In this document: positions 8,193 to 64,000 of the stretch, piece by piece
Layout: the number at the start of each line of letters is the position of its first letter
Numbering within the stretch: the stretch's first letter is position 1
Assembly: GCA_013306675.1 (NCBI GenBank)
Contig: JABLUY010000146.1
Span: 1-64,000, forward strand
Length of the DNA: 64,000 nt
Direction: 5' to 3'
Origin: Thraustochytrium sp. TN22
Lineage: Eukaryota > Sar > Bigyra > Thraustochytrida > Thraustochytriidae
Notes under the pieces: generated by a model
Told to the model about the DNA's origin: nothing
Seen by the model: only the letters and a program-made list of their open reading frames with translations
The model's database searches: none
Translations under genes and position numbers: made by a program

Positions 8193-8680
8193 ACGTGAAT
8201 CCGCGCGTGCCTCTCCATGCGTGCGTGCACGTCGCATTGCGCGGCTGCCCTCTTTTCTTTTTCAGTGGGCATTTTGGCCTAGCTAGAGCCTGGTGCAAAG
8301 AAAAAAATCCTTGGAAGGAGGTTAGCTTGTCTCTCTCTCTCTGTGTGTGTGTGCGTCCAAATGACACCATGCTTCGCTTGCTTGGCGCGCGAGCAAGTCG
8401 AGTGAGTCGAGCGAGCGAGCGAGCGAGCATTGATCCCATGCGTGCCATGCTCATGCTGCGCGCAGCGTGACACGCGCGCCCTCACTGGCACTGTCAGGCT
8501 TGCAGTGCTGTGACTCGGAGCCAAGTGGCAGCGTAACGGCTCCGCCAGCCGGGCTTGCACTCGAATTCGGACTCGCACTCGGACTCAGACATCATCAACT
8601 CAATCGACAGAACGCTTGCCGCGCACGCGCACGCGCGCGCACGCGCACGTGCTGCGCGTGCGCAAGCTTTCTGCCGGCCC
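8193..8680. other. Intergenic; CT/TG microsatellite, no supported gene
   Basis: Holds a CTCTCTCTCTCTGTGTGTGTGTG microsatellite near 8328-8352 and GAGC repeats near 8405-8430. Short open frames overlap these repeats and lack any recognisable features. Confidence 0.5.
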
Positions 8681-10366
8681 ATGGCGCGCGTTGGCGAGGG
8701 CGATGGCATCCTATGCGCAAGCCTGGAAGGCGCGCGAGGGCTGCCAAGGCCCACGCGAGCCATGGTGAGGGTCGCCTACGTGGAGCCCGGCGCGCCGGGC
8801 GACAACGTGCTCTTCCGCAGCAAGCAGGTGGTGCACGAGACCGAAGCGACGCGCGAGGCCAGCCTCGAGCCGCGCTGGGAAGCGGCCGCCTTCGAGTACG
8901 AGGTGTATTGCCCGGCCAGCGGCGACTGGCGCGACCTCGAGGGCGACCTGCTCTTCACGCTGTACGAGGACCAGGGCCAGCGCCGCGTCTTTGCAGGCCA
9001 GGCGCTCGTCCCGCTCGTCCACCTGCTCGACTACGACGGTCCGCTCGGCGCGCGCCCGCTGCACGGCGGCACGCAGCGCACCGACCTCGAGCTCCTCGAC
9101 CTCGTCGACCGCGACGGTTCGCCAACACCGGGCGCCCTGCTCGTGCGCCTCCGGCTCGAGCTGCCGCCCGAAGAGCCCCGCACGCCACCGCCTGGCGAGG
9201 ACGCCACCACCTCGTGCACCGAGAGCGAGACGCTCTCGAGCTCCACGCCCTCTGCTGGCGTCGGCAAGAGGGACAAGGCAGGGTCTCGCAGCGGCCGCCG
9301 CGCCTCCCGCACTGCTGCTCCGCACGTGCACCCGTCCGAGGCGCGGGAGCGGCATCTGCGCCGGGTCCGGCAGCGCCAGCAGGAGCAGATCGACCGCGAG
9401 AATCGCCGCCTGCAGGAGCGTATTCGCCAAGTACAGAGCCACACACGTACCCTTGCCCTTGGCCTTGGCGGCAGCGCCAGTGCTGCAGCCGCAGCTGCAG
9501 CTGCTGCTGCCGCGGCTACTGCTGGGGCCTGGACCGAGACCAAGACGTCCGAGGCGTGGCGCCATCAGCACAAGCTCGCCGGCGCCGGGGGCTCGCAGAC
9601 CGAGCTGCACAAGCTGAACGAGGAGGCAGGGCGCCTTCGGCAGCGCGCCGCGGACCTGGAGACGGAAATCACGCGGACCAAGTCGGCCGTGGCCCACGAC
9701 GAAAACTTGCTGCGGCGGCAACAGCAGGCCGCCCGCGAGGCGGCCGCCGTCTCGTCCCGGGCGGGCCGTCCCAAGAGCGCGGGGAGACGGCGGCGCAGCG
9801 AGTACGAGGGCGGTGGCGACGGCGACGGCGACGAACACCTGGCGCCAGGGCACGACCTGCGCGCGTTGCGGTATCGTGCGTGCCGCGCGCTTGAGGCGCA
9901 CCGCAAGCTGCACCAGGAGGCGCAGAGCCTGCTGGCGCGGCGCAAGCGCGCGCAGCGGGACCTGGCGGAGAGCGCCGAGGCAGTGGAGGAGGCCGAGGCG
10001 GCACTGCAGGCGGCGCAGGAGACGCACAAGGCGCACCTCGAGCAGCTGCGCGAGGGCCGGCCCCGCGACGCCCAAGTGCACGAGGCGCGCGTCGCGCTGT
10101 CCGTGGCCGAGGAGCAGCTGTCGCTGCGGCAGCGCGAGCTCGCGCACCGCGAGGACCTGATCCGCGACGACGTGCGTCGGCTGGAAGCGAAGCTGGAGCG
10201 CAAGACCGCCAAGCTGCGGCGTGCGCAGGAAGAGCTCGCAGACCTGGTCCGCGCGCGTGAGGCCGGCGACGAGGCGCGCAGGCGCGCAGGCGAGGCGGCC
10301 GCGGCGGAGATGGCCACGCTCCAGGCGGCCACCGCGTACCTAGAGGCCGCGGCCGAGCGCCTGTGA
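8681..10366 (+). CDS. C2-like domain plus long coiled-coil protein
   Basis: 561 residues from the ATG at 8681, which begins MARVGEGDGILCASLEGARGL. An in-frame extension to 8555 has His/Arg/Ala low complexity and is probably leader. Residues ~5-165 resemble a C2 beta-sandwich (GDLLFTLYEDQGQRRVFAGQ, then ALVPLVHLL). After a Pro/Ser linker, residues ~220 to the end are heptad-rich coiled coil (RQRQQEQIDRENRRLQERIRQ, then ETEITRTKSAVAHDENLLRR and others), interrupted by an Ala run at ~270. C2-plus-coiled-coil layouts are common in centrosomal and ciliary scaffolds; that role is inferred. The final 75 bp including the stop are duplicated immediately downstream. Confidence 0.72.
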   Translation: MARVGEGDGILCASLEGARGLPRPTRAMVRVAYVEPGAPGDNVLFRSKQVVHETEATREASLEPRWEAAAFEYEVYCPASGDWRDLEGDLLFTLYEDQGQRRVFAGQALVPLVHLLDYDGPLGARPLHGGTQRTDLELLDLVDRDGSPTPGALLVRLRLELPPEEPRTPPPGEDATTSCTESETLSSSTPSAGVGKRDKAGSRSGRRASRTAAPHVHPSEARERHLRRVRQRQQEQIDRENRRLQERIRQVQSHTRTLALGLGGSASAAAAAAAAAAAATAGAWTETKTSEAWRHQHKLAGAGGSQTELHKLNEEAGRLRQRAADLETEITRTKSAVAHDENLLRRQQQAAREAAAVSSRAGRPKSAGRRRRSEYEGGGDGDGDEHLAPGHDLRALRYRACRALEAHRKLHQEAQSLLARRKRAQRDLAESAEAVEEAEAALQAAQETHKAHLEQLREGRPRDAQVHEARVALSVAEEQLSLRQRELAHREDLIRDDVRRLEAKLERKTAKLRRAQEELADLVRAREAGDEARRRAGEAAAAEMATLQAATAYLEAAAERL

Positions 10367-10456
10367 TGAAACGAGGAGAACGAGATGGCCACGCTCCAGG
10401 CGGCCAACGCGTACCTAGAGGCCGCGGCCGAGCGCCTGTGATGAAACGAGGAGAAC
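10307..10456. repeat. 75-bp tandem duplication spanning the stop codon of the C2 gene
   Basis: Unit 10307-10381 is repeated at 10382-10456 with one base difference (ACCGCG/AACGCG). The period is 25 codons, and the unit carries the double stop TGATGA, so the second copy lies in the 3' UTR and the protein is not lengthened. Near-identity suggests a recent event. Confidence 0.9.
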
Positions 10457-10491
10457 GAGAAACTCCGGTTTTACTTACCTCTTGTGTTTGA

Positions 10492-10533
10492 GGTGGGGTG
10501 GGTGGGTGGGTGGGTGGGTGGGTGGGTGGGTGG
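10492..10533 (+). repeat. (GGGT)n tract with G-quadruplex potential
   Basis: About nine GGGT units in a row between the 3' ends of two converging genes. Four or more G3 runs with 1-nt loops is the strongest class of predicted G-quadruplex. On the other strand it lies 3' of the triosephosphate isomerase stop, within its likely UTR or terminator region. Confidence 0.75.
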
Positions 10534-29323: not shown

Positions 29324-31332
29324 ATGGCACGGGCGGCGGCGGCGGCCGCGCGGCCGCGCGGCGGCGCGGCGGCGGTTCTCGCCTGCGCGGGTCTGGCGGC
29401 GCTCGCGCTGACCCGGCTGGCGGCAGCAGCCTGCGTGTGCAGCGAGGTCGATGGCCCGCTCGCAATGCGCTGCTTCGGCTGCGAGGCGTTTCCCGCCTTC
29501 GAGCCCGCCTTTGAGCAAGTCACTAGCCTGTGCGTGCGGTGTTGCCCTCGAGCGCGCGCAGCTTGACTAGAACTGACGTGACCTGGACGCGAGCGCCTCC
29601 GCAGCACCGTGTTTGGCTCGTCGGAAACCTCGCTCACGACCGTGCCTCCGACGATCGCGCTCTTCTCTTCGCTGGAGTCGCTGACAATAACTTCCCATCA
29701 CGAGCTCCACTCGCTTCCCGACGCACTTGGCAACCTCTCCGCGCTCACCACACTGTATGTCACCATGGTTACATGACAGTGAGTCCGAGTCGTTGCCAGC
29801 AGGAGCACTCACAGTTTAAACACAGCTCCCTCAGCCGGAACCAGCTCTACTCGCTGCCCGAGGGCATCAGTAGGCTGCAGGGTCTCCGTGAACTGTACGT
29901 CACGTCCGCCGATGCTGACCTGGCTATGAACCGACCGCGCTCACGACGCCTTCCACGCAGCTCGGTGACGCGGAATCAGCTCACAGCCCTGCCCGAGGGC
30001 TTGAGTGGACTTGAGAACCTCGAGCTCCTGTAGGTGAACCTGTGGACATCGGCGTGTGAACTGTTTGAGGCTGACAGGCTGCCTTCTCTTGGCACGCAGG
30101 GAGCTCTTCAACAACAACCTCACCGAGTTGCCGGACGTCCTCGATGGCCTCGCGTCGCTCACAGAGCTGTACGTTCCGATCGTGACCGGGCCGTGCGGCT
30201 TGTGCTGACGTCTCGCAGAAAGTTGCAAGTCAACGAACTCAACTCCCTTCCGCCGTCCACCACGGGGCTCTCAACTCTCGAAAAGCTGTGAGTCTCTGTG
30301 GTTTTGCTCGACCGCGACGTGGATAGCTCACAACTCGAGCTGTGGCGAAACAGCTTTCTTGTCGGTAACCCTCTCTCTACGCTTCCTGACGCGGTGCTGA
30401 GCCTTACGCAGCTCACCTGGCTGTGAGTTTGTTCCCGGCGGAGCTGGCGCAGGGTTTAAAGACCGAAACACATCAGAGCGAGCCAACTAACCCCTTTGCA
30501 GGATCCTCCAATTCGCTGAGCTCACCTCACTGCCAGAGGGTATAAGCGCGCTCTCCAGACTGGGCTCCATGTGAGTCGCTATGCTCCGCCCCCGGCCTCC
30601 TTCCACGAATGCTGACGAGTGACCATGCCTTCTCCCGCAGCAACCTATCGTACAACCAGCTCACGGCGCTCCCAACGAGCATCTCGGCACTCACGCAGCT
30701 CACTTCGCTGTAAGTGTCCTTGGCCCCTGCCGCCCACGCCCGCGCATGTGCGCACGCACAGCACATACCTAATGTAGACGTTGGTGCCAATTCGCAGCGG
30801 GCTCGAGGTGAACAACCTTACTGCACTTCCGGATGGCCTCGGCCAGCTCACCAGTCTGACCTACTTGCGCCTTGACAACAACGACGGGCTTTCGCAGCTT
30901 CCCCTCTCGCTCACAAATCTCGTGGCGCTCAAGTACCTCTACACCTTCGACTTGCCGCTGGAGGGCCCACAACCGAACATGGATCTCTTGGCGCTGCAGA
31001 TCGAGGGGCCAAACCGAGACTGGGCCAGTTACGGGGATACCTCGAGCCCAACGACCGACAGCAGCCCGACCCGATCGCCAGACTCCTTCTCAGCCTCTAC
31101 TCTTCCCGTTGGCGCCAGCGTGGGGATCGCCGCCGCAGTAACACTTTTCTTCGTGCTGCTTTGCGTGCGCTACTGCCCATGTTGTGTGCGCTGCAGAAAT
31201 CCGTGGCTGCGCGAAGTCGGCCGGAACGCTGGTGGCACCATCGACGCCGTGGACGACATCCCCTTGGCCGTGCCGGTAGAAGACAAGCCGCTCGAGGCCG
31301 GCGCCCAGATCGTGGGTAAGCACAAGGACTAG
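29324..31332 (+). CDS. LRR type I membrane protein with one LRR per exon (10 exons)
   Basis: Exons: 29324-29529, 29605-29754, 29826-29894, 29961-30029, 30100-30168, 30219-30287, 30354-30422, 30502-30570, 30641-30709, 30798-31332. Total 457 residues. Exon 1 encodes a signal peptide (VLACAGLAALALTRLAAAAC) and a Cys-containing cap. Exons 3-9 are each exactly 69 nt, one 23-residue LRR (LSLSRNQLYSLPEGISRLQG type), and all nine introns are phase 2 after a CT/AT dinucleotide. The last exon adds two repeats, a Ser/Thr/Pro stalk, a membrane helix (~383-403, VGIAAAVTLFFVLLCV), Cys-rich juxtamembrane residues and a ~50-residue cytosolic tail. Donors are GTGCGT, GTACGT or GTGAGT-like; most introns contain CTGAC. 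Probable surface receptor or adhesion protein; ligand unknown. Confidence 0.92.
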
Positions 31333-31650: not shown

Positions 31651-34600
31651 ATGTTCAAGGCGTTCACGATCGACTACGGCGCAGACACGCCGGGCCAGCG
31701 CACGGAGCGGCAGCGCCAGGAGCACCGCGACTGCGGCTGCCTGCGCGGGCGCGCCTGCTCCTGCAACGCGAACCCGTCGGTCGCGCGCGCCTCGCTCGCG
31801 TACTGCGGACGATGCGCAAACTGCAGGCAAAACAAACGCAGCCTCCAGCGCAGGGGCCGCATGGGCCGCCGCAAATGCGACAATCCGCCAGGCGAGCGGG
31901 ACCAGTGGATTCGCGTGCGCGTGGGTCGTTCTGTCGTCAAGCTGCCCCGCGCTCAGCTCGAGACGCTGCAGCGCGACTCGCCTGTGCTCGTGCGTCAGGC
32001 GACGGCCCTCAGTCCTGTGTTGACGCAGCCCTCCTTGCACGAGCTCGGGCTCGATGACCCGATCTCGGGACAGCGTAGCCCCGGGTATGCAAGCGTGGGC
32101 AGCGCGCCAGGGAGCCCTGACGCTGACTCCGTCTCGGCAGCAAGCCCTGGCTCGCAAACCTTTGCATCCGTCGCCTGGAAGCAAATTCATCTCATGCGCG
32201 AAGGTCACCGTCGGCGTGCCGCGGAGTTGGTGGATGCCGCCGCTTCGAGCGCAGCCCAGCTCGCCCAGCTGCAGGAGGAGCTGGCCGGCCTCCCTGAAAA
32301 GGTTGTTCGGGTGGGCGCCAACGGCGTCCCGCACGTGGACACCATGATCAGTCATGCGGTGTGGCAGCGCGTCCCGCTGCCGGTGGCGGAGGCAGCGTTC
32401 CGCGAACGCATTTCGGCAGCCGAGGCAGCGCTCAAAGACGCTCAGGAGGAGCTCGACGACATTAACGTCGGCCTCAACGCGCGCGCCTCCACCATGATGC
32501 AGCGCTGGATCCGAGCGACCTTCAAACGTACCGAGCCGGAGCGCATGGAGCGCGCTCGCGTCGAGAAGAACAACGACGATTCGGCGGTCGCCGTGCAGCG
32601 ACTCTACAGGGGGCACCGGGGTCGCCGGCGCGCCGCCTTCTTTCGAAAGCGCAGGCGTGACGGCGCCGCGCGGCGAGTGCAGCGAATCGTGCGAGGTCAT
32701 CTTGGTCGATGCGCCGCCCGCCGCTGCGTCGTGGAGCGGGCCGAGGAGGGCCGCGAGGAGGCGGCTCAGCGCATCCAACACTTTGTGCGCCAGTCGCGAC
32801 GCACGGCCATTGCGCGGGTGCAGCGACAGGCAGTGGCCGAGGCGAAGCAGGCCGCGACCCAGGATGTGCAGGCGCGCATCATTCAGCGTATCGCGAGAGG
32901 CTACCTGGCGCGCAAGCAAAGGCACGCGCGCCGGACAGAACTGCGCCTTGGGCCGCGCGTACGTGAGCTGGCCAACCGCTACATTGCGCGAGGCGATCTC
33001 TTCTCCTTCTTGCACGCCATCAATCGCGATTACGAGCTCCACATGGCCCAGCAGGAGAAGCTCCGCAAGCTGGAGATGGAGAACGCTGCGACCTTTATCG
33101 AGGAGGTGCTCGCGCATCGAGAGCGCCTCGTGCGCGAGCGTTGGCTGCAGTGGGAGCGGCAGAAGGCGGCAATGCGGACCACGGACGAGGCGATCCGCGT
33201 CTACGAGGCCAAGGCCGCGCAGGGCATCGAGGAGGGTACACGGGCCTCGCTCAGCTCACACACTGCCTCGTCCTGGACGGATCCCTCTTCGCCATCGCGG
33301 CAACAGCAGCAGCGCCAGCAGCATTCACATCACCAGCACTCGCAGCGGGAGCAGCACGCGGGCCGACGTCAGTTGCGCGCTGGCCAGCGTCGCCCTCGCG
33401 CTCTCAAGAGCCTAGGTAGGCCACACGAGAGCAGTCGGGGCGGCGCGACGAGGCTGGCCAAGCGTCCTCCCTATTTGCCCAACGCTCTCGAGGCGCTGCA
33501 GGAGCAGCGCTACAAGGAGGCGATGCAGCAGCCAGGAATCGGCCGCGGCCGCCGCAAGCAGCGCCCCGGCCGGCGCGCTCGTGGTGTCGTCGGCAAGACC
33601 GGCCCCGATACGCGTCGTGCAGACGCCAGGGACGGCCAACAGCTTTTGGAGGAGCTGGACGCCGCCCTTGAGCAGGACCCTGGCGAGGTTCCGCACATTG
33701 TGGCCGTGCCGGCGCGTACCGCCGTGGTGCGTGACCCGCTCGCCAAGCCAGAAGCCCCGGAACAGTCGGTGCTGGAACTCAAGCATCAGGCCTTCAGCCG
33801 CCGGGTGGCGCCAGAGGTCCTGGCGCGCGCTGCCTTTGCCACACAGCTGCGCGCCACGGAGATCCCGAGCCTGAATTTGCCCATTGATAACCTCGTCTTC
33901 CAGGCTGCGCTTCGTGACCGCGTGCAAAAGATGCGTTTTGGCGACGCGGGCAACTCCACCGAGGCAAATCTGGAACAGTTCGTCTTCTCCGCACCGGCCA
34001 CGCTGCGCATTGCCGTCGAGGAGGAAGCGCTGCAACTCTCTGCGCCACTGGTCGCCGGATTTCGCGCGCGAGGCGTGGAGACGTGTCGGCAGCTGCAAGA
34101 GGTTGCCGCCCGCTTCGAAAGCGAGTACTTTGTGCCACCGTCCCTCGCTCATGGCTTGCGTACCCTCCTCGGTGTGGCCGCCCAGACCATTGAGTACATG
34201 CGCCCAAGCTGCGTTCAAAATCAATGGGAGCATATTTTGGAGGCCACCGCCGAGGGTGCAGCAACAGAGCCTGCTCCAGGGGCGAAGCTATTGCCTGCGG
34301 CGAGCCGCGCCAGCAGCACCAGCACCGCTAGCACCAAACCCAACTGCACGAGCAGCACGAGCAGCAACAACAACAACAGCAGTCATGAAGACGACGACAA
34401 CAAGAATGGCAACCAGAACAACAACGAGGGTCAAGATAGCGGCCAACTCGGCACGAACAACACGAAGTGCCCGCTCGAGATCGCGACACAAAAGGCACAG
34501 TCGGCTGCAGCGGAGCTTGAGGCCAACCTCTATGCGCAACCGGACGCTGGGTCGACCATGCTCGGCCACTTTGGCGTTGCTGAAGCTGAGCGGCCCCGCA

Positions 34601-35913
34601 CCTCGCCGCACGTGCAGGGTGCACTTTTTGAGGAGAGCCTCCGACCTGGCACTGCAGCACTGCGGGACTGGGACTGGCGCGGCAACATGGGCCTTCCTAC
34701 GGAGCTCGCCGCTTTGCAGGCTGAAGACGAGAACAACGACGAGCGGAGGCCTGGCACAGCGGCGGCGGCGCTCGGGGGCTGGAGATCGTCGAGCGACCGA
34801 AGTCTACTGCGACGGCCGTCAACACAGTCGTCTATGGCGTCACGCAGCTCATCCGGCACGCGTGTGACCTTTGCGGCGGACGTCGTGGACCGTCCCTCGA
34901 CGCAGGCCTCGCTGTTCTCAACGACTTCAGATGCCTCCCGCCCGCCGAGTCGCGCGAGCTACGCATCAACCCTGGCGACGGTGGATTGGAACCACGGAGC
35001 TGTCATGGGCGAGGGCGAGGGCGTTGATGGCAACGTTCAAATCTGGAAGTCTGACGCAGACGGGCAGGAGCAGCAGTCGCCCACCGAGGAGGCTGATTGT
35101 GCGCGGACCGCCAAGGACTCGAGCGAGTCGCTGCTCCCAGAGGAGCTCCGCGCCGCATTTACAGAGCGCGTACGGCGTGGCATCGCGCATTTTGGGCCAG
35201 AGGACTCCATCCACGAGCTGCTGACACACATCTTCATGGACGCGGACTCGTCCATGCAGACGTTCGCGGGCACAGATCTCGGCTCGCTGCTCGAAGATTT
35301 GGCGCGCCTGCCGCCCGAGGCCGAGGTGGCGCGGCGCGAGATGCTGCGCGCACACTACCGAGCCGCGGCGCAGGCCGCTGCGCCTGTCGCGGAGGATCTG
35401 GCCCGCGCGGGGTTTTTGAGCATCAGCTCGTTAGCAGCCTGCCCGCTCCGATCGCTAGGGGTGCCGGACGAGGTGGCCGCCGCCCTGCAGCGCGAATGCA
35501 TGAGGATTTTGAAGGCGGTACAGCCCGCGGTGGCGCGGGACTTTGACGCTCGCTATGCGCGGAGCAGCACGGGGCCATTTGGCAGTGCGACGCTCCGCGC
35601 GCCGCTGGACCCGGTTCGCTTCGGACGGGCGCGAGCGACTGGCCATGAGGCTGGTGAGCACGACGACAGCCTGAGGTGCCCAGTCTCGCCGGGCCCTCGT
35701 CGCGAGCAGCTCGTCGCGCGCGTGCTGCACCGCCGCGACCAGCTGGCCCAGGCCAGCATGGTGCCCGTGGCCGATGCATCGGCGGCCGACATTGACCAGG
35801 AGCTGACGTACGCTGAGTGGAAGGCCGCAGGCCCCAAGGTTGGGCTCGACGCGGTGGTGGCGACGCACGAGGAAGCGGACAGCATCCGCGGGTGGCACCC
35901 ATTTCCCCGATGA
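31651..35913 (+). CDS. Large IQ-motif protein, probable calmodulin-binding scaffold
   Basis: 1420 residues, one exon. The N-terminus is Cys-rich (CGCLRGRACSC, CGRCANC) and may bind metal. IQ-type repeats lie at ~310-425: AVQRLYRGHRGRRR, RVQRIVRGHLGRC, RIQHFVRQSRR, IIQRIARGYLARKQ. A helical region follows, then disordered stretches with His/Gln and Asn/Ser/Asp repeats (~880-930). RVTFAADVV (~1070) matches the RVxF phosphatase-1 docking pattern. The C-terminal part (~1150-1290) is ordered and ends in a small helical module (LSISSLAACPLRSLGVPDEV) resembling a SAM or HhH fold. IQ arrays bind calmodulin or myosin-light-chain-like proteins; many such protist proteins are ciliary. The stop codon falls in the first unit of a TGACGC repeat. 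Confidence 0.75.
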   Translation: MFKAFTIDYGADTPGQRTERQRQEHRDCGCLRGRACSCNANPSVARASLAYCGRCANCRQNKRSLQRRGRMGRRKCDNPPGERDQWIRVRVGRSVVKLPRAQLETLQRDSPVLVRQATALSPVLTQPSLHELGLDDPISGQRSPGYASVGSAPGSPDADSVSAASPGSQTFASVAWKQIHLMREGHRRRAAELVDAAASSAAQLAQLQEELAGLPEKVVRVGANGVPHVDTMISHAVWQRVPLPVAEAAFRERISAAEAALKDAQEELDDINVGLNARASTMMQRWIRATFKRTEPERMERARVEKNNDDSAVAVQRLYRGHRGRRRAAFFRKRRRDGAARRVQRIVRGHLGRCAARRCVVERAEEGREEAAQRIQHFVRQSRRTAIARVQRQAVAEAKQAATQDVQARIIQRIARGYLARKQRHARRTELRLGPRVRELANRYIARGDLFSFLHAINRDYELHMAQQEKLRKLEMENAATFIEEVLAHRERLVRERWLQWERQKAAMRTTDEAIRVYEAKAAQGIEEGTRASLSSHTASSWTDPSSPSRQQQQRQQHSHHQHSQREQHAGRRQLRAGQRRPRALKSLGRPHESSRGGATRLAKRPPYLPNALEALQEQRYKEAMQQPGIGRGRRKQRPGRRARGVVGKTGPDTRRADARDGQQLLEELDAALEQDPGEVPHIVAVPARTAVVRDPLAKPEAPEQSVLELKHQAFSRRVAPEVLARAAFATQLRATEIPSLNLPIDNLVFQAALRDRVQKMRFGDAGNSTEANLEQFVFSAPATLRIAVEEEALQLSAPLVAGFRARGVETCRQLQEVAARFESEYFVPPSLAHGLRTLLGVAAQTIEYMRPSCVQNQWEHILEATAEGAATEPAPGAKLLPAASRASSTSTASTKPNCTSSTSSNNNNSSHEDDDNKNGNQNNNEGQDSGQLGTNNTKCPLEIATQKAQSAAAELEANLYAQPDAGSTMLGHFGVAEAERPRTSPHVQGALFEESLRPGTAALRDWDWRGNMGLPTELAALQAEDENNDERRPGTAAAALGGWRSSSDRSLLRRPSTQSSMASRSSSGTRVTFAADVVDRPSTQASLFSTTSDASRPPSRASYASTLATVDWNHGAVMGEGEGVDGNVQIWKSDADGQEQQSPTEEADCARTAKDSSESLLPEELRAAFTERVRRGIAHFGPEDSIHELLTHIFMDADSSMQTFAGTDLGSLLEDLARLPPEAEVARREMLRAHYRAAAQAAAPVAEDLARAGFLSISSLAACPLRSLGVPDEVAAALQRECMRILKAVQPAVARDFDARYARSSTGPFGSATLRAPLDPVRFGRARATGHEAGEHDDSLRCPVSPGPRREQLVARVLHRRDQLAQASMVPVADASAADIDQELTYAEWKAAGPKVGLDAVVATHEEADSIRGWHPFPR

Positions 35914-38857: not shown

Positions 38858-40531
38858 ATGGTGGGCTCGTGGCGGGCGTCCGCCATGGTGGCGCTGGGCG
38901 CCGTGGTCTACGTGGCGGCCGGACAGCGGCTGACGGACCTGCGGTCGCTGGTGGACGAGGCGGAACCGCGATTGTGCCTGGAGAAGAACGTGCGGCTGGA
39001 CGGCGATACGCTGTCGGTTCATGACGGCGTGGACGACATGGAGGACTGCCGCGACCTGTGCCTTGGCACGAGCGCGTGCGAGCACTGGGTGTTCTACGAG
39101 TGGTACACCTTCAACAAGTGCAAGCTCCTGACGAGCGTGACAGAGGTGGACACGTCCTCGTGCCACATGTCTGGGTCGAAGACGTGCGTGACGGCCACGC
39201 CGACTGCGTTGCCGACGGAGCTGCCGACTGAGGCGCCAACCGCGTTGCCGACGGAGCTGCCGACTGCGGCGCCGACGGACCTGCCGACTGAGGCGCCGAC
39301 GGCCTACCCGACGCGGCTGCCGACGCGGAGCCCGACGGGCTCGCCGACCGAGGAGCGTACGGTGGAGGAGGAGGAGGTGTGCCACGTGAGCGGGCACATG
39401 TACACGGGCGGCAAGAACATCGGGAAGCTCAGCGGCATCGCGAGCGTGGATGACTGCCGGGCCGAGTGCCTCAAGCAGACCAACTGCGAAGGCTACTCGT
39501 ACGGCACGAAGAACAAGAAGTGCTACCTCAAGGGCAAGTCGTACAAGCTCAAGCTGAAGTCCGACTTTGTGGCCGGCCCGCGCACGTGCTCGCCCCTGAG
39601 CGCCGAATGCGACAGCCAGTTCTTCGAGTACATGGGCACATCGATCAAGACGATCAAGAACGTGGCGTCCCCCAAGGTGTGCGCGCAGGAGTGCATAAAT
39701 ACCGCTTCGTGCGAGTCGTGGACTGTGCGCCAGGACAAGAAGAAGTGCGAGCTTCGCAAGGATGTTCATGCGGAGCCTGAGGAGCGCAACGCGTACTACC
39801 ACACCGGCCTGGTGAGCGGGTGCGAGAGCGTTATCGTGGCGACGGCGAGCCCGACGTCCGAGCCGGCGATGCCGACGCTGCCGCCTGTGATCTCGTGCCA
39901 CCACAAGACCACGGACGTGCTCTTTGTGGTGGATGCATCGTCGTCCATCGATCTGGAGGAGTGGGCCCACCTCAAGCTGTTCGTGCGGCAGCTGGCCAGC
40001 GCCTTTGACGTCGGCACGGGCGCCTACCAGTCGCGCCTGACCATGATGAACTACTCCACGACCGTGGACCTGCTGTGGGACTTTTCGTCTCCGATTGCGA
40101 CGGACCAGGACGAGTTCCAGTCCCACGTGCACGCGATCGTCCCGGAGCAGCGCGCCACCGGCACGGGCCCGGCGCTCGTGGAGGCCATCAACCTGTTCTG
40201 GCCGCTCGAGGTGCGCGATAACCTTGACCACCGCGTCGTCATCATCGCCACGGACGGCAACCCGAACCAGCTCGAAGGCTGCAAGGCTGCGGGCTTCTCC
40301 AACTCGGCCAAGAAGTGCCCCAAGGAGGCCGCCGAGGCGCTCCGCAAGGGCCCGGACGGCGTCCTCGGCACCGAAGACGACGTCTACCTCGTCTACGTGC
40401 GCGTCGGAGACCGCGTCAAGGCTGGTGTCTTCGACTTCGTCGAGGACCTCCAGGTCAACAGCGAGCCCGAGGACCTCTACACCATCGCTGACGCCATCAT
40501 CTACGACGTCTGCGGTGCCAGCACCGGCTAA
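38858..40531 (+). CDS. Secreted PAN/Apple and von Willebrand A domain protein
   Basis: 557 residues. Signal peptide MVGSWRASAMVALGAVVYVAAGQ. Three cysteine-rich PAN/Apple-like modules: ~28-113 (CLEKNVRLDG, CRDLCLGTSACEHWVFYEW, CKLL), ~175-245 (CHVSGHMYTGG, CRAECLKQTNCEGYSY, CYLKG) and ~250-325 (CDSQFFEYMG, CAQECINTASCESWTV, CELRK). A Pro-Thr repeat linker (~114-165, ALPTELPTEAPT) separates the first two. A VWA domain starts at ~352: DVLFVVDASSSID (DxSxS of the MIDAS), GTGPAL with the MIDAS Thr, and ATDGNPN with the Asp, so metal binding looks intact. No membrane anchor at the C-terminus. Likely secreted or wall-associated adhesive. PT linkers of this kind are common in stramenopiles. Start has the signal peptide directly after it. 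Confidence 0.88.
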   Translation: MVGSWRASAMVALGAVVYVAAGQRLTDLRSLVDEAEPRLCLEKNVRLDGDTLSVHDGVDDMEDCRDLCLGTSACEHWVFYEWYTFNKCKLLTSVTEVDTSSCHMSGSKTCVTATPTALPTELPTEAPTALPTELPTAAPTDLPTEAPTAYPTRLPTRSPTGSPTEERTVEEEEVCHVSGHMYTGGKNIGKLSGIASVDDCRAECLKQTNCEGYSYGTKNKKCYLKGKSYKLKLKSDFVAGPRTCSPLSAECDSQFFEYMGTSIKTIKNVASPKVCAQECINTASCESWTVRQDKKKCELRKDVHAEPEERNAYYHTGLVSGCESVIVATASPTSEPAMPTLPPVISCHHKTTDVLFVVDASSSIDLEEWAHLKLFVRQLASAFDVGTGAYQSRLTMMNYSTTVDLLWDFSSPIATDQDEFQSHVHAIVPEQRATGTGPALVEAINLFWPLEVRDNLDHRVVIIATDGNPNQLEGCKAAGFSNSAKKCPKEAAEALRKGPDGVLGTEDDVYLVYVRVGDRVKAGVFDFVEDLQVNSEPEDLYTIADAIIYDVCGASTG

Positions 40532-41187
40532 GTTTTGGCCCCTCCTCACTCCCAGTAGCCTACCACTCTAGCTAAGTTAGCTCAGAAGAAAAGCAGCCCA
40601 ACCCGTTGCCATCCACCAGCGCCTTGTTCCAAGATCGCGGCCCCGCAGCCAGACACTGCAACCAACCAACCAACCAACCAAATAAAATCGCCTTGGAGAG
40701 CTTCGCGAGACCAACCAAGCAACCAGGGCAAGCAAGCCCGGGGCCAGACCGTGACTGACTTGCCTCGGGCACCGCAGCATGCCAAGCAAGCCCGCCAGCT
40801 CGCCGGGCGCGGCAGCTCGGCTCCCGCCTCGCGACCCGGGGCCGCTGCGGCTCCGAAGACCGCGGAATTGTCCTGGCTCAGCTCGCTGGAGCCTTCGCGA
40901 CGCTGGAGCCCGGATCCGAGGCGCCCTCCGAGGCCGGGGCTGCCTTGCCTTCTAGCTCGCAAGCTAGCTGGCCTTGCCCTGATGCCTGGCCTTGGCCGCC
41001 TTGTGCTTCTGTTCAGGGCTTGTTTGCCCTGCCTCGCCTCGCCTTGCCTTGTAGGTCTGCGCCGGCGCGGCGGCCGCCCAGGCCAGAACCCGGACGGACG
41101 CCCGCGCGGGCGGCGAGCGCGAGCGCGCGGCGGCGGCGGCGGCGTTGTTGGCGCTGGCGGCGGCGGCCTCGAGGGGCGCCGCGCCGG
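40532..41187. other. Intergenic; possible poly(A) signal and ACCA repeat
   Basis: AATAAA occurs at 40681-40686, about 150 nt after the PAN/VWA stop, following an (ACCA)n run at ~40660-40680. The remainder is the upstream region of the RING-CH gene. The frame of the RING-CH gene is open back to 40945 but lacks convincing sequence. Confidence 0.45.
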
Positions 41188-42057
41188 ATGAGCATGGACG
41201 GCGGCGCGGCGGCGGCGGCGACGGCGGCGGCCGCGGAGAAGAAGCGCGACGCGCGCGCGGCGCTCGGCGCGGCGGCCGCCGACCGCGGCGACGCCGACAA
41301 GGCCGCGCGAGCGGACGACCGAGCGGACGACCGCCACGACGGAGACGCTGCGGGCGCCGGCGCCGCGAAGGCCGCCGAGAGCGACGAGCCCACCACGTCT
41401 GGGGCGACGAGCGACGGGGCCCGGGACGCCAAGGAGGAGGAGGAGGATGACGACCGCATGTGCAGGTTCTGCTTTGAGGGCGAGGAGGAGGAGGCGCTGT
41501 GCAAGGACGTGTGCGCGTGCAAGGGCGACCAGCGGTACGTGCACATGGGGTGCCTGCGGCGGTGGCAGCGCATGGTGCTGGTGAGCCAGCCGACGCACCC
41601 GGCGTTCTACCGGGACGACATGCGGCACCACGTGTGCGGCGTGTGCAAGAGCAAGTTCACGTGTCCGCCGCCGACGCGGCTGGAGCTGATGCAGAGCTTC
41701 ACGGGCGCGGAGATCGCCGCGCTGGTGGGCGAGGGCCGCTTCATCGCGGCACGCTCCATGTTCTCGGAGATGATGAAGCGCGAGGCGATGGAGCAGCCCA
41801 TGCTCACCATCATGGGCTCGTACGCGCATTGGATCGATGGCGCCTACCTGATCACGCGCGTCGAGGAGGACCGCGGCTGCTTCGAGCTCGAGGTTGTTTC
41901 CGAGGCGCAGCTGCGCACCTTTCGCGAGCTGTGTGCGAGGGCCGGCGGGCTGGACTCGGACGAGTCTGGCTCGGATTCAGACTCGGACTCGGACGCGGAC
42001 TCGAACGCAGACCTGAATGCCGAGTCGCAGGCGGAGACGCAGGCGGGCAGCCGCGGT

Positions 42058-42097
<40 letters not shown>

Positions 42098-43035
42098 CAG
42101 CAACACCGCCAGCCGCGCCGACATCGCCTGCGCCGATGGAGCGGCCCTCACTGCAGATCCGCGGGCGCGTCTTCAACCTGATGCCGGAGGGCTCGCTGGA
42201 GGGCGTGCCGGAGTCGGACCTGGGGTCGGCCCTGGCGAACCTGCACGCGCCGTGCACCGTGGTGCTGCGCACTGCGCTGAGCTGCGCGGAAGACACGGTG
42301 CAAGCGGTGAACTTGACGCGCCCGTTCTCGGAGCCGTCACCGCGGTGGGTGCGGTCGGCGGTGGCGGCTGCGCGCGCCACGGCGCGGGAGACGTGCCCAA
42401 CGGCGGCCGACGTGGCCGTCGTGTGCTACCGCGGCGGGCCCTGCGAGGAGGACGAAGTGAGTGCGTGCATCGTGTTTGGCGGGGACGGGGGCTACGAGGT
42501 GGTGTACTCCCTGGTGGACGCCATGGTGGCTGCGGGACGGCGCGCGGCACCGGAGGCTGCTGTGGAGGGCCTGGTCGCCGGGCAGCTCGCGGAGCTGCAC
42601 GGGCTGACGCAGGCGACGCAGCACAACGGGGCGCGCGGCGTGCTGGAGTCCTTTGACGCGGCCGGCGAGCGTTGGCACGTGCGGCTCACGGGCGGCGCGC
42701 TTGTGCGCGCGCGGCCAGCGAACGTGCGCGGGTTGTCGGCCGGCGAGAAGGGCCGCGTGCTGGCGTTCTTCGGGTACGCGGGGTGGAGCCGCGCGCAGCT
42801 GCTGGGCGAGATCGCGCGCGGGCACTGGGGGCTCTGCCACTCGTGCCTGCAAGACATTTGCTGCGCCCCGGAGGACTGCCGCGCCAGCCTCGAGTCGCGA
42901 CTCGTGTACGCGCCTGAGTCGGAGATGACGGACGAGTACATCAAAGAGCAGCAGCGGCAGATGGAGGCCTTGCGCGGCGAGGCCCAGCAGGCCACCTCGC
43001 ACGCCGGCGGCGCTGCCAATGCGAGGCGTTCATGA
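41188..43035 (+). CDS. RING-CH (MARCH-type) protein fused to a YqgE/UPF0301-like domain
   Basis: 615 residues from MSMDGG. After an Ala/Asp-rich leader, a RING-CH finger: CRFC (92-95), then CACKGDQRYVHMGC with the exact C-x-C-x7-H-x2-C spacing, then CGVC (~151-154). These proteins are usually E3 ubiquitin ligases. An acidic stretch and poly-Gln (~292-303) follow. From ~325 a second ordered region appears: GRVFNLMPEG, VVCYRGGPCEEDEVSACIV and FFGYAGWSRAQLLGEIARGHWGLC. The last two resemble the GGPV and GYAGWGPGQLE-E signatures of the YqgE/AlgH (UPF0301) family. A short SH3-like piece (GVLESFDAAGERWHVRLTGG) is inserted between them. No membrane segments, unlike most MARCH proteins. The RING-CH call is firm; the YqgE call is moderately confident from motif spacing. 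Confidence 0.82.
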
Positions 43036-47319: not shown

Positions 47320-49695
47320 ATGGCGGCCTTCGAGGTGGGCGGCGTCGTGGTGGACGAGGAGGGCCACCGCGGCTGGGTGCGCTACGTGGGGCCCGTCGCG
47401 ACGGCCAAGAAGAAGGAAGCCGTGTGGGTCGGCGTGGAGTGGGAGACGGCGGGGCGCGGCAAGCATGACGGCGCCGTCAAGGACAAGGCGAGCGGGGAGG
47501 AGACGAGGTATTTCACGTGCGCCGAGGGCCAGGGGTCCTTCGTCAAGCCGCAGTTCCTGCGCGCCGGCGTGACCTTCGCGGACGCACTCATCACCAGATA
47601 CGAGCCCGAGGCCGCGCAGCGCGAGGCCGAGGATGGCGAGGGCGCCGGCGCGGGCGGCGAGGGCGACGACGGCGAGGCTGGGCCCCGGCGGCGCAACGGC
47701 GAGGTCGTGGAGATCGAGGCCGTCGGCATGGACCAGATCCGCGGCAAGCAGCGCATCCACAAGCTCCGCGAGGTGTCGCTGGCATCGTGCGTCGTGGTGT
47801 CCGCCGGCCGCGCCGGCTGGATCCGCGAGAACTGCCCGCACGTGCACGAGCTGGACCTGTCGGACAACCTGATCGACTCGTGGGCCACGGTCGGCGAGGT
47901 GGCGCAGCAGCTCGACCAGCTCGAGCACCTGTCGCTGGCGCGCAACCACCTGCGCTCCGGCCTGCCCATCAACCCGATCGAGCCGCTCCCGGCGCCGCTC
48001 AAGGTGCCCATGGCGGCGCTTCGCGTGCTGGTGCTCAACCGCACCGGCACCACCTTCTCGCAGGTGCAGCGCCTGGACGAGGAGGGCGTGCTGCCGGTGC
48101 TGGAGGAGCTCGTGCTGGGTGACAATGACCTGACCTCGCTCGACCCCATCGGCAGCCTCAAGTCCGCCGAGGTGGCGCACCCCAAGGGCTCCTACGCCGC
48201 CTGGGCGCAGGAGCAGATCAAGCTGGTCGACCGCAAGGGCTTCACGCCGGAGTCCTTCGCCAAGGGCTTTGCGTGCCTGCGCAAGATCGACATCTCGCGC
48301 AACAAGCTCGCGACCTGGTCCGAGGTCTGGCGTCTCGCGCGCCTCCCGGCGCTGCGCCACATCAACGCGAGCGACAACCCAATCGAGGAGGTCTTCTTCG
48401 ACCCGCCCGCTGCCGTCGCCGCCACGGATCTCAGCGAGGGTGGCCAGGAGCAGCAGCAGCAGCAATCGGAGGGAGAGGAGGCCTGCTGCGGCGCCGAGGG
48501 CGGCGCCTGCGCCCCGCCCGCGCCGGCGCCACGCACCGAGAACGAGCTGCAGCAGTCGCGCCTCGAGGCCGCACAGGCCTTTGAGCGCGGGCTCGCGCCG
48601 GACGCCGCCTCGCCGCAGCCCGTGGCCGAGTCCGAGTCCGAGGGGGGGAGCCCTGAGCCGCAGGACGCCGAGCGCAAGGCAGAGGACGGGGCAGCCCCCG
48701 CCGACGCGCGGTCCGCCGACGGCAAGAAGCCGTCCCGCTTCGTGGAGGAGCTGGACATCGTCATGAGCAACGGCATGGTGATCCCCATGCTCGAGAAGCG
48801 CGAGCGCGCTCGCTACACCGAGGCGCGCCTCTTCCGCGGCTCCGGCAAGGTGGGCGGCTCGCAGCCCTTTAGCGCGCTCGAGACGCTCCTCCTCTGCAGG
48901 ACGCGCATTGCGGCCTGGTCCAGCGTCGACGCGCTCAACGCCTTCCCTGCGCTCAAGGAGCTGCGCCTGCAGGGCTCGCCCGTCATCGCCGCGGCCGGCA
49001 ACGCCGGCGCCGCGCGCCAGACCACCATTGCGCGCGTGCGCGGCCTCGAGCGCCTCAACGGGTCCGAGGTCGCCCCGCGCGAGCGCTCCGACGCCGAGCG
49101 CCTCTACCTCAAGCGTGTCGCCGTCGCGCTCACCGACCTGGCGCCGCCCGCGCGCGACGCCAAGCTCGCTGAGCACCCGCGCTACGCCGAGCTCGTCGCC
49201 GAGCACGGCGACCCGGCCGAGGCCGCGCGCCGCGCCAAGGCCGCGCAGGAGGCTGACGGCTCGCTCGCCTCCAACAGCGCCAAGGTCACCATCCGCAGCT
49301 TCGATCCGCGCACCTGTACGGCGCCGCCCGTCACCAAGCGCCTCCCGCTCGCCATGACCGTCAAGGAGCTCAAGCTGCTCTGCCAGCGCCTCTTTAGCGT
49401 CGACACCGATCTGCAGACGCTCTTTTACCGCGAGACCGGCAAGGACTTTGGCCACCCCGTCGCGCTCGACGAGGACGGCATGTCCATCGTCGACTTTGGC
49501 GTCAAGCCCGGCGGCGAGATCATTATGGAGGCGCGCGACCCGGAGAAGGACAAGGCAGACGCTGACAAGCGTGCCGCCCGCGACGCGCAGCGCATGAAGG
49601 ACCAGGAGTCCCGCGCTGAGCGTGAGGCTGCCATCAAGCGCGACGAGATCCAGCAGCTCAAGGACTCCGTTCTCTCTGGCGGCCCGGCCAGTTAG
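47320..49695 (+). CDS. TBCE: Tubulin-specific chaperone E (tubulin folding cofactor E)
   Basis: 791 residues, longer than the usual ~530. CAP-Gly domain at ~5-95 (GWVRYVGPV, VGVEWETAGRGKHDGAVKD, FVKPQFL), an LRR region (LREVSLASCVVVS, VHELDLSDNLIDSWATVG, LEHLSLARNHL, LRKIDISRNKLATWSEV) and a C-terminal ubiquitin-like domain at ~650-745 (LAMTVKELKLLCQRLFSVDT, VDFGVKPGGEI). This order is diagnostic of TBCE, which acts with TBCC, TBCD and TBCB in making and breaking alpha/beta-tubulin dimers. Extra length comes from a Gln/Glu/Pro-rich insert at ~370-475 and a charged coil after the Ubl (KDKADADKRAARDAQRMKDQ). The CAP-Gly GKNDG motif reads GKHDG. Single exon. Confidence 0.95.
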   Translation: MAAFEVGGVVVDEEGHRGWVRYVGPVATAKKKEAVWVGVEWETAGRGKHDGAVKDKASGEETRYFTCAEGQGSFVKPQFLRAGVTFADALITRYEPEAAQREAEDGEGAGAGGEGDDGEAGPRRRNGEVVEIEAVGMDQIRGKQRIHKLREVSLASCVVVSAGRAGWIRENCPHVHELDLSDNLIDSWATVGEVAQQLDQLEHLSLARNHLRSGLPINPIEPLPAPLKVPMAALRVLVLNRTGTTFSQVQRLDEEGVLPVLEELVLGDNDLTSLDPIGSLKSAEVAHPKGSYAAWAQEQIKLVDRKGFTPESFAKGFACLRKIDISRNKLATWSEVWRLARLPALRHINASDNPIEEVFFDPPAAVAATDLSEGGQEQQQQQSEGEEACCGAEGGACAPPAPAPRTENELQQSRLEAAQAFERGLAPDAASPQPVAESESEGGSPEPQDAERKAEDGAAPADARSADGKKPSRFVEELDIVMSNGMVIPMLEKRERARYTEARLFRGSGKVGGSQPFSALETLLLCRTRIAAWSSVDALNAFPALKELRLQGSPVIAAAGNAGAARQTTIARVRGLERLNGSEVAPRERSDAERLYLKRVAVALTDLAPPARDAKLAEHPRYAELVAEHGDPAEAARRAKAAQEADGSLASNSAKVTIRSFDPRTCTAPPVTKRLPLAMTVKELKLLCQRLFSVDTDLQTLFYRETGKDFGHPVALDEDGMSIVDFGVKPGGEIIMEARDPEKDKADADKRAARDAQRMKDQESRAEREAAIKRDEIQQLKDSVLSGGPAS

Positions 49696-50028: not shown

Positions 50029-51498
50029 TTACTGCTGCTGGAGGCCATCCAGCGCCACAATCAACGTGGGCCGAGCAGCGCGGAACTGCTCCGCAAGCTC
50101 CTTACCGTCGCCTAGGTCATTGCCACCGAGCTCCAGGACGCGCAGGCCATCGCCTTCCGAGGCAGCTAGAACCTGGATGAGCGCCTCGGCACCAGGTCGA
50201 GTCAGACCGACACCACCAAGGGCCAGCGTGCGCAGCGCGCCCTCGCCCTCGCCGTTAGCGAGCGCAGCGCACACCAGAGCGGCGCCATCGTCGCCCAGCG
50301 CATTGCCCATGAGGCGCAGCTCCTCGAGAGAATTGGCCGAGAGCGCGAGGCGGACCGCCTCGGCGAAGGCCGCGCTCTTTTCGCTGTCATTGCCGCTGCG
50401 AGGCGCCACCGGATCCTCCTCCTCCTCCTCGTCGTCGCCGGCCTGGTTGCCCTTTTGCAGACCGATTCCGACGCTAGTTAGGTTGAGGCGAGCGAGCGTC
50501 GGGGCGCTGGCCGCAGCGAGAGCCGCCGCGAGCGCACGCAAGCCGTCCAAACCGACTGGGTTGGCCCGAATGTCGAGGTCCTCGAGCTGCGTCGCGCAGG
50601 CCGCCGCGGCCGCCTCGTCCACAGCGCTGATCTCATTGCGACCGGCCGCCAAGACGCGCAGCGTGCGAAAGCGAGAGCCGGGCCGCGCCGCCGCCGCGCA
50701 GGCCGCCGCAAAGCCAGCCGTACCGAGACCGCAGCCGTCCACGTGCAGCTCCCGCACGCCGTGCTCGTGCTCCTGGGCAGCCTCGGGGCCTTCGTCCTCC
50801 TCCCCTTGCTGCTGCTGCTGCTGCTCCAGTTGGTCGGAGCCGCTCGAGCCCACGAGCGCGGCGACGCCCTGGTCGCCCACGGACGGGTTGTCGCTGAGCA
50901 CGAGGCGCAGGCCGGCGTTGCCCTTGGCAGCGGCGCGCAGCGCGAGGCCGAGCGCGCGGCAGCCGTCCACGCCGAGCCCCGTGGCGTTGAGCTCGAGATT
51001 GCGCAGGAGCGCGGGCGCGTCGCGCAGGCCGGCGGCGAGCGCGGCGACGCCCTCATCGCCGAGCGCGTTGCGGCCCAGGCGCACGTCCTGCAGCGCGTGC
51101 GAGGGCGTCGCCAGCACTCGCGCGAGCGAGGCCATGCCGGGCGGGCCGATGCTCTTGAGCTCCAGGTCGAGCGCCTCGAGCGTCGGGTTGTCCCAGGCGT
51201 CCAGCAGCGCGTGCAGCTCGTCGTCGCCAAAGGCCGCGCACCCGAGCGCCAGCCTGCGCAGGCGCCTGTTCCTGCGCAGCGCGGCGCCGATCCTGCGCGC
51301 GGCCTCAGGCGTCACGCTGTGTCCCGAGCAGAGCAGCTCGTCCAGCGAGGTGTTGTCCGCGAGCGCGTCGGCGAGCGCGGCCAGCCCTGCCTCGTCCACC
51401 TTGCGCAGGCTCAGCACCAGCATCGCCGGCCCGGTCTCGTTGGCGCGCAGCTTCGCGACCAGGTCGTCCACGCCGCGCCGCGGCTGGCCCCACGCCAT
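50029..51498 (-). CDS. Ribonuclease-inhibitor-type leucine-rich repeat protein
   Basis: 489 residues from MAWGQPRRGVDDLVAKL. It is made almost entirely of ~27-30-residue LRRs of the RNI/NOD type: LDELLCSGHSVTPEAARRIG, LRRLALGCAAFGDDELHALL, LEALDLELKSIGPPGMASLA, LQDVRLGRNALGDEGVAALA, LELNATGLGVDGCRALGLAL, LRVLELGGNDLGDGKEL at the end. A short Gln/Glu insert (~225-240) and a Glu/Asp insert (~395) interrupt the solenoid. No NACHT, membrane or signal segment, so a cytosolic or ciliary scaffold is likely. Its start is only 203 bp from the divergent TOG gene. Function not inferable beyond protein binding. Confidence 0.85.
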   Translation of the reverse strand: MAWGQPRRGVDDLVAKLRANETGPAMLVLSLRKVDEAGLAALADALADNTSLDELLCSGHSVTPEAARRIGAALRRNRRLRRLALGCAAFGDDELHALLDAWDNPTLEALDLELKSIGPPGMASLARVLATPSHALQDVRLGRNALGDEGVAALAAGLRDAPALLRNLELNATGLGVDGCRALGLALRAAAKGNAGLRLVLSDNPSVGDQGVAALVGSSGSDQLEQQQQQQGEEDEGPEAAQEHEHGVRELHVDGCGLGTAGFAAACAAAARPGSRFRTLRVLAAGRNEISAVDEAAAAACATQLEDLDIRANPVGLDGLRALAAALAAASAPTLARLNLTSVGIGLQKGNQAGDDEEEEEDPVAPRSGNDSEKSAAFAEAVRLALSANSLEELRLMGNALGDDGAALVCAALANGEGEGALRTLALGGVGLTRPGAEALIQVLAASEGDGLRVLELGGNDLGDGKELAEQFRAARPTLIVALDGLQQQ

Positions 51499-63809: not shown

Positions 63810-64000
63810 GGTCAAACGCGAGGAGAGACTTGCCGAAGGCGGGAAGAGGTTGCGGGTCTGACTGCCTGCGGCGGCAGAATGATGCGCTCCTGCGAGTGAG
63901 GGGCTGCATGCGGCGGCATGGCATGATCCAAGCGAGGGGGGCCAACCTGCGCTCGAGAATCGCCGTCCCCGAAGTTGTTCAAGGCATGCACGCCGCGTGC
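63810..64000. other. Upstream region of SWEET member 4; window edge
   Basis: About 190 bp with CGGCGGCA repeats near 63870-63920. No gene seen before the window ends. Confidence 0.4.

What the first reader, a model, noticed from the sequence alone, without database searches (positions are those of the whole stretch)
29324..31332. LRR receptor-like gene built from identical 69-nt exons, one repeat each, all phase-2 introns
Seven consecutive internal exons are exactly 69 nt and each encodes one 23-residue LRR; all nine introns fall at the same place in the repeat (phase 2). Introns differ in length and sequence while exon length is fixed. This indicates growth by exon duplication, and any single exon could be skipped or gained without changing the frame. 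In a genome where a 12.9-kb dynein gene has no intron at all, the contrast is striking. Regulated exon skipping could create receptor variants.
Basis: seen in the sequence. Interest (0 to 1): 0.85.

Follow-up and report, generated by a model that had tools for sequence, protein, structure and literature searches.

The report
Membrane LRR gene, one-repeat exons
A predicted cell-surface protein gene of a GC-rich eukaryote has each of seven leucine-rich repeats on its own 69-base exon; the structure is real, but the same kind of gene layout is already described in plants, animals, brown algae and ciliates, so it is a new member of a known kind.

Summary
The gene has ten exons and nine GT-AG introns, all phase 2; exons 3-9 are exactly 69 nt and each encodes one 23-residue LRR. 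Donors read GTNNGT and acceptors CAG in 9 of 9. All nine introns split the same codon, the first hydrophobic residue of xxLxLxx. The 457-residue protein has a signal-peptide-like start, about 11 LRRs, one hydrophobic TM-like stretch and a short tail; Pfam shows no kinase. A strict scan of the window finds these seven exons and nothing else.

The exons are identical in length, not sequence (35-62% nt). Introns are unrelated. Synonymous agreement is at background overall; only exons 3 and 4 keep a weak trace of common descent. Exon duplication is likely but old, not shown. Regulated skipping has no evidence here and could not be tested.

Rice LRR kinases usually have introns at the same residue and phase; Tetrahymena, brown algae and vertebrates have similar arrays. 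Verdict: ordinary in kind, a clean example, lineage not identified.

The parts
29324..29529 (+). exon 1 (206 nt): signal-peptide-like segment, N-terminal Cys cluster (residues 37, 39, 50, 53), start of LRR domain
29530..29604 (+). intron 1, 75 nt, phase 2, GTGCGT..CAG
29605..29754 (+). exon 2 (150 nt): two LRRs of 26 and 24 residues, no intron between them
29755..29825 (+). intron 2, 71 nt, phase 2, GTATGT..CAG
29826..29894 (+). exon 3, 69 nt, one LRR
29895..29960 (+). intron 3, 66 nt, phase 2; the only intron open in frame if retained
29961..30029 (+). exon 4, 69 nt, one LRR; closest to exon 3 (62% nt)
30030..30099 (+). intron 4, 70 nt, phase 2; retention gives an immediate stop
30100..30168 (+). 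exon 5, 69 nt, one LRR
30169..30218 (+). intron 5, 50 nt, phase 2
30219..30287 (+). exon 6, 69 nt, one LRR
30288..30353 (+). intron 6, 66 nt, phase 2; retention gives an immediate stop
30354..30422 (+). exon 7, 69 nt, one LRR
30423..30501 (+). intron 7, 79 nt, phase 2; retention gives an immediate stop
30502..30570 (+). exon 8, 69 nt, one LRR
30571..30640 (+). intron 8, 70 nt, phase 2 (splits an Ile codon); retention gives an immediate stop
30641..30709 (+). exon 9, 69 nt, one LRR
30710..30797 (+). intron 9, 88 nt, phase 2; retention gives an immediate stop
30798..31332 (+). exon 10 (535 nt): two LRRs (23 and 24 residues), linker, hydrophobic TM-like stretch (19-residue windows covering residues 379-412), Cys at 402, 406, 408, 409, 412, short tail, stop TAG

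Best explanation
This is a single-pass membrane LRR protein (receptor-like protein without a kinase) whose ectodomain is encoded mostly as one-repeat exons. Each is cut at the codon of the first hydrophobic residue of xxLxLxx, where the beta strand of the repeat starts (LRR fold: general knowledge), after the second base. The array most likely grew by old tandem duplication of intron-plus-exon units (unequal crossing over), followed by divergence until only protein-level LRR constraints remain. Normal expression is splicing of all nine short introns into one 457-residue product; the repeats stack into a solenoid that binds an extracellular ligand, and the tail couples to unknown partners. Shown: exon-intron anatomy, phase, position, LRR pattern, hydrophobic stretches. 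Inferred: duplication, membrane topology, ligand binding, constitutive splicing.
For: Anatomy and splice signals. LRR families above curated cut-offs, best LRR_8 at 1e-24; best solved structures by sequence are LIC12759, LRRD1, LIC10831 and SHOC-2. Same residue and same phase nine times, although each 69-nt exon has 6-9 other hydrophobic codons. Used sites have CT (8) or AT (1) before the donor, never AG, so they do not look like independent gains at canonical proto-splice sites (the MAG|G consensus is recalled). All 7 intron-flanked repeats are 23 residues; of the 4 other repeats 3 differ (26, 24, 24), hypergeometric 0.024. Exons 3 and 4 share 9 of 12 same-residue codons, P 0.0025 alone and 0.028 over all pairs. 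Two other LRR genes in the window read through their LRRs in one ORF, so LRR coding sequence as such does not collect introns here. Rice LRR kinases usually have the same phase-2 cut at the first Leu of xxLxLxx, with the authors inferring exon duplication.
Against: No intron-to-intron similarity: 2 of 36 pairs at P<0.05, as chance gives; intron ends no more alike than shuffles, P 0.196. Synonymous agreement over all eight modules is at background, 100 against 98.4. Neighbouring modules are not more alike than distant ones (0.468 against 0.491). The proto-splice argument is weak, since only 1 MAG|G site exists in the seven exons to be avoided. Terminal repeats may deviate for capping reasons, so the 23-residue argument is confounded by position. 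No transcript, no intron-bearing relative and no own genome were available.
Confidence: 0.68

Rival explanations
1. Ancestral structure: the one-LRR-per-exon array with this exact cut is older than the lineage, shared by descent with LRR genes of plants and perhaps others, and little or no duplication happened in this gene's own line.
For: Same residue and phase as usual in rice LRR kinases; synonymous agreement at background; introns unrelated.
Against: The weak exon 3/4 resemblance suggests at least one later duplication. Brown algal LRR exons appear to be cut at another base of the codon and another place of the repeat (my reading of 'nucleotides 3 to 71'), so the cut is not universal.
Confidence: 0.17
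2. Parallel intron gain: an intron-less, bacterial-type 23-residue LRR gene was invaded nine times at the same site of the repeat, for example by introner-type elements.
For: Introns are unrelated. Intron-less prokaryotic LRR genes with 23-residue period and up to 45% identity (best segment) exist. Introners occur in many eukaryotes and show insertion biases, towards nucleosome linkers for instance.
Against: Introns match nothing else in the window beyond short stretches of 11-41 nt at E 0.01 or worse. No consistent target-site duplication: the longest direct repeats at the junctions are 4-6 nt at varying offsets, none in 3 of 9. Two other LRR genes nearby are untouched. Introner copies would be expected to resemble each other; these do not, though age could erase that.
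Confidence: 0.1
3. Regulated exon skipping makes receptor variants with different numbers of repeats.
For: Every 69-nt exon starts and ends in phase 2, so skipping keeps the frame. Brown algal ROCO genes with one-LRR exons and human NLRP3 are reported to be spliced alternatively. In three species, among them the brown alga Ectocarpus, exon skipping went with short exons and, unusually, short introns.
Against: Intron retention exceeded exon skipping in all but one species of a broad survey, Ectocarpus had low skipping frequencies, and high skipping is described as an animal trait. Introns here are only 50-88 nt. No transcript evidence either way.
Confidence: 0.1
4. Chance or pseudogene: the splice model is an artefact.
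For: Codon usage is atypical for the window: adaptation to dynein 0.47, the lowest against 22 other ORF segments (0.48-0.86), GC3 0.78 where only one other is lower (0.77). The crude gene finder missed 5 of 9 introns.
Against: Nine of nine consistent splice signals, an unbroken 457-residue frame, LRR families at 1e-24 after splicing, 7 scan hits against 0 in shuffles.
Confidence: 0.02

Closest known systems
Rice LRR-kinase genes with one-LRR exons (PMC3050792; passages and section 6 seen)
   Same: Phase-2 introns that usually split the first Leu of xxLxLxx and separate single repeats; 72-nt units most common (the sentence is garbled and I read it as exon length), 69 nt among the other exon sizes; exon duplication proposed.
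   Different: Rice units are mostly 72 nt and the proteins carry a kinase; here 69 nt and no kinase. The repeats here resemble SHOC-2 and bacterial LRR proteins most.
Brown algal ROCO LRR exons (PMC11378527; passages seen)
   Same: One LRR per exon of fixed length, all introns said to be in phase 2, proposed receptors, alternative splicing reported.
   Different: 72 nt, LRR-ROC-COR proteins; by the text nucleotides 3-71 of the exon encode the 23 residues, which contain LxxLxxLxxLxLxxNxL, so the cut seems to lie after another codon base and at another place of the repeat (my inference).
Tetrahymena 90-bp-exon LRR genes (PMC6564038; passages seen)
   Same: Tandem LRR exons of exactly one length, phase 2 with the first base of an exon completing the codon, exon duplication inferred.
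   Different: 90 nt, thousands of genes, nucleotide similarity still kept in the youngest group; here one gene seen, 69 nt, synonymous sites at background.
Human NLR and other LRR exon arrays (PMC6642158; passages seen)
   Same: Exons match LRR units and mostly keep frame on skipping.
   Different: Size range quoted is 75-200 bp; alternative splicing is shown there for NLRP3, not here.

Membership tests
One-LRR-per-exon genes as in rice LRR kinases | phase-2 introns between LRRs | tested here: met
   9 of 9 phase 2; rice description
One-LRR-per-exon genes as in rice LRR kinases | intron splits the first Leu (or its substitute) of xxLxLxx | tested here: met
   9 of 9, L in 8 and I in 1
LRR receptor-like kinases | cytoplasmic kinase domain | tested here: not met
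   Only LRR families above cut-off in Pfam; tail of about 55 residues
LRR receptor-like proteins (anatomy) | signal peptide, LRR ectodomain, one TM, short tail | tested here: inconclusive
   Hydropathy windows fit at residues 14-42 and 379-412 with LRRs between; no signal-peptide or topology predictor was available
Brown algal LRR-ROCO genes | ROC-COR domains | tested here: not met
   No such family in the Pfam scan
Brown algal LRR-ROCO genes | 72-nt LRR exons | tested here: not met
   69 nt in 7 of 7
Tetrahymena 90-bp LRR exon genes | exons of exactly 90 bp | tested here: not met
   69 nt
Introner-derived introns | introns alike in sequence in many copies | tested here: inconclusive
   No similarity among the nine or to the rest of the window; the whole genome was not held
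Exon-skipping receptor diversity | transcripts lacking one or more 69-nt exons | not testable with these tools
   No RNA data

The most novel reading that the evidence does not exclude
The lineage carries a family of surface LRR receptors whose 69-nt modules are exchanged among genes or skipped in transcripts, giving the organism a modular recognition repertoire; and the shared cut at the first Leu of xxLxLxx in plants and here goes back to one ancestral single-repeat LRR exon.
Probability: 0.12. Interest if true: 0.65.

Novelty: new member of a known kind. Interest (0 to 1): 0.33.

Why it matters
It adds a clean 69-nt example, from a lineage that I could not name, to the old question of why LRR exons in distant eukaryotes so often match single repeats with introns of one phase. 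Because the cut falls on the same residue as in rice, comparing it across eukaryotes could separate common descent from convergence. By itself it does not change what is known.

Tried and rejected
Relatives: two viral-contig scans found none (8 and 16 pattern matches, none confirmed); the one genome-contig scan returned 13 prokaryotic loci out of 139 pattern matches, used only as intron-less controls. These scans reach close relatives only. Recent expansion of the array: not supported, because synonymous agreement is at background and adjacent modules are no closer; the exception is exons 3/4. Introner origin: no support in the window. A likeness between the ends of introns 2 and 3 that I noticed by eye did not stand out: the best pair was 2/6 and P(max) was 0.196. 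A crude codon-usage gene finder recovered 4 of the 9 introns exactly, missed 5, drew wrong ones in and around this gene and likely false genes elsewhere; it was trained on window ORFs taken as single exons, which biases it towards intron-free models for those, so I use it only as rough context. Rfam gave no match at gathering thresholds. Organism: not identified; triosephosphate isomerase against solved structures was not informative. Literature: 9 of 10 searches; no listed title is about a 69-nt LRR exon array, but listings were partly capped (15 of 61 shown) and the library lacks most subscription journals. The original brown algal paper (Zambounis 2012) is not held; I saw only its citation. 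Papers seen as passages only: PMC6564038, PMC11378527, PMC6642158, PMC5296948, PMC9860276, PMC6142364; PMC3050792 as passages and one section.

Full report
What is there. The gene runs from ATG 29324 to the stop at 31332 on the + strand in ten exons. All nine introns are phase 2, 50-88 nt, GT-AG; exons 3 to 9 are each exactly 69 nt; the spliced frame is 457 residues plus stop. Donors read GTNNGT and acceptors CAG in 9 of 9. The split codon is always the first hydrophobic residue of the xxLxLxx motif, Leu in 8 and Ile in 1. Exon 2 (150 nt) carries two repeats of 26 and 24 residues and exon 10 carries two of 23 and 24, so three of twelve such starts have no intron (my count by eye on the output).

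Is it more than chance? A scan of both strands of the 64 kb for AG | 66, 69, 72 or 75 nt open LRR pattern | GT returned exactly the seven exons, none elsewhere, and none in 5 single-base shuffles of one strand. The pattern was modelled on this gene. In 13 prokaryotic loci with intron-less LRR arrays (78,786 bases, one strand) 1 module looked spliceable, beside 235 LRR-pattern modules of 69 nt counted without the splice requirement. A crude codon-based gene finder, not trained on this gene, drew 4 of the 9 introns at the same coordinates and missed 5.

The protein. In Pfam only LRR families pass their cut-offs, best LRR_8 at 1e-24. By sequence the best solved structures are LIC12759 (a Leptospira protein, recalled), LRRD1, LIC10831 and SHOC-2. 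Hydropathy gives an N-terminal hydrophobic stretch (19-residue windows starting at 14-24) and one TM-like stretch (windows starting at 379-394); four Cys lie after the first stretch (37, 39, 50, 53), five in or just after the second (402-412); four N-glycosylation motifs lie in the LRR part. This is receptor-like-protein anatomy without a kinase; topology is inferred, since no dedicated predictor was available.

Context. I scanned 25 other window ORFs in Pfam: 18 have a family above cut-off, 2 only below it, 5 none. Of the 18, the gene finder drew 13 without any intron, dynein included; the other five were merged with neighbours (the 60KD_IMP gene with this one, the CAP-Gly/LRR gene with the CLASP-like one, one SWEET with a TPR ORF) or given doubtful introns (LSM). 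It was trained on most of these ORFs as single exons, and its L23 model is truncated, so this is rough. Two other LRR genes, one CAP-Gly plus LRR (TBCE-like, a recalled label) and one LRR_6 (RI-like, recalled label), read through their LRRs in one ORF. The gene's codon usage is the least like dynein of the ORF segments compared (0.47 against 0.48-0.86 in 22 others; GC3 0.78, with only the ORF next door, 32254-35889, lower at 0.77), which fits low expression, a regional effect or a different origin; I did not separate these.

Duplication or insertion? For duplication: same codon, same base, nine times, with 6-9 other hydrophobic codons per exon available; CT or AT before the donor, never AG, although only 1 MAG|G site exists in the seven exons, so this point is weak; 23-residue length in 7 of 7 intron-flanked repeats against 1 of 4 others (hypergeometric 0.024, confounded by terminal position); and shared codons between exons 3 and 4 (9 of 12; P 0.0025 alone, 0.028 over all pairs), with a 57-nt direct repeat at 72% that includes the acceptor. 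Against, or neutral: introns unrelated (2 of 36 pairs at P<0.05; ends P 0.196), overall synonymous agreement at background (100 against 98.4, P 0.43), adjacent exons no closer than distant ones (0.468 against 0.491). 23-residue spacing also runs through intron-less prokaryotic arrays, so exon length by itself proves nothing once the intron position is set. My reading is old duplication with later saturation. Introner-type insertion has no support within the window, but the whole genome could not be searched.

Alternative splicing. Skipping any 69-nt exon keeps the frame. Retention would meet a stop in 8 of 9 introns, in 5 of them (4, 6, 7, 8, 9) in the second codon, made by the donor itself; only intron 3 (66 nt) is open and in frame. 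A broad comparison (PMC6142364, passages) says that intron retention exceeded exon skipping in all but one species and that animals are unusual in skipping. The same passages say that length effects on retention differ between lineages and that in Ectocarpus, Klebsormidium and B. natans skipping went with short exons and short introns, so short introns alone do not rule skipping out. Reported splice variants of brown algal LRR exons (PMC11378527, passages) and human NLRP3 (PMC6642158, passages) keep it open. Another possible reason for keeping the introns is expression: a paper on plant LRR-RLKs cites that several introns of ERECTA are needed for its expression (PMC5296948, passages).

What is known. 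Rice LRR kinases: phase-2 introns that usually split the first Leu of xxLxLxx and separate single repeats, 72-nt units most common with 69 among the other exon sizes, exon duplication proposed (PMC3050792, passages and section 6). This is the exact positional match. Tetrahymena: tens of thousands of 90-bp LRR exons with phase-2 introns, said by the authors to be unknown in that form from any other organism (PMC6564038, passages). Brown algae: 72-bp one-LRR exons in ROCO genes; the same paper states that gonadotrophin-receptor introns are all phase 2. From 'nucleotides 3 to 71' I infer that the brown algal cut is after the first base of the codon and elsewhere in the repeat, so it is a parallel, not the same position. 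The present gene is thus a new member of a known kind, in a lineage I could not name.

Verdict. Observation confirmed; interpretation partly supported; interest modest.

Noticed in passing
29751-29774 (+): An imperfect inverted repeat (25 nt aligned, 88%, E 0.01) spans the donor of intron 2; a hairpin there could hide the splice site.
   Followed up: no
892-3150 (+): One ORF joins DUF924 (N-terminal) with a PP-loop ATP_bind_3 domain (TilS-like, recalled label), which looks like an unusual fusion.
   Followed up: no
58078-63998 (-): Four consecutive SWEET (MtN3_slv) sugar-transporter ORFs in tandem on one strand.
   Followed up: no
40759-43032 (+): RING-variant and AlgH-like (DUF179) domains in one ORF.
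   Followed up: no
47320-49695 (+) and 50029-51498 (-): Two further LRR genes, one with CAP-Gly plus LRR and one LRR_6, both reading through their LRRs in one ORF.
   Followed up: partly
introns 1-5 versus 6-9, 29530-30797: Donors of introns 6-9 are GTGAGT or GTAAGT, those of 1-5 are GTGCGT, GTATGT, GTACGT, GTAGGT, GTACGT: the GTRAGT donors all lie in the 3' half.
   Followed up: no
31651-35913 (+): A 1420-residue ORF directly downstream has the same low codon adaptation as the LRR gene (0.48, GC3 0.77 over 32254-35889) and only a sub-threshold IQ motif.
   Followed up: no
10307-10460: A 75-nt unit repeated 2.1 times at 98% over the end of an ORF (8555-10366), followed by (GGGT)n at 10496-10533.
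   Followed up: no
38858-40531 (+): PAN domains, a VWA domain and a PT repeat in one ORF, another probable surface or secreted protein.
   Followed up: no
53856-53928 (-): ARAGORN reports one doubtful tRNA with a four-base anticodon (ggac).
   Followed up: no
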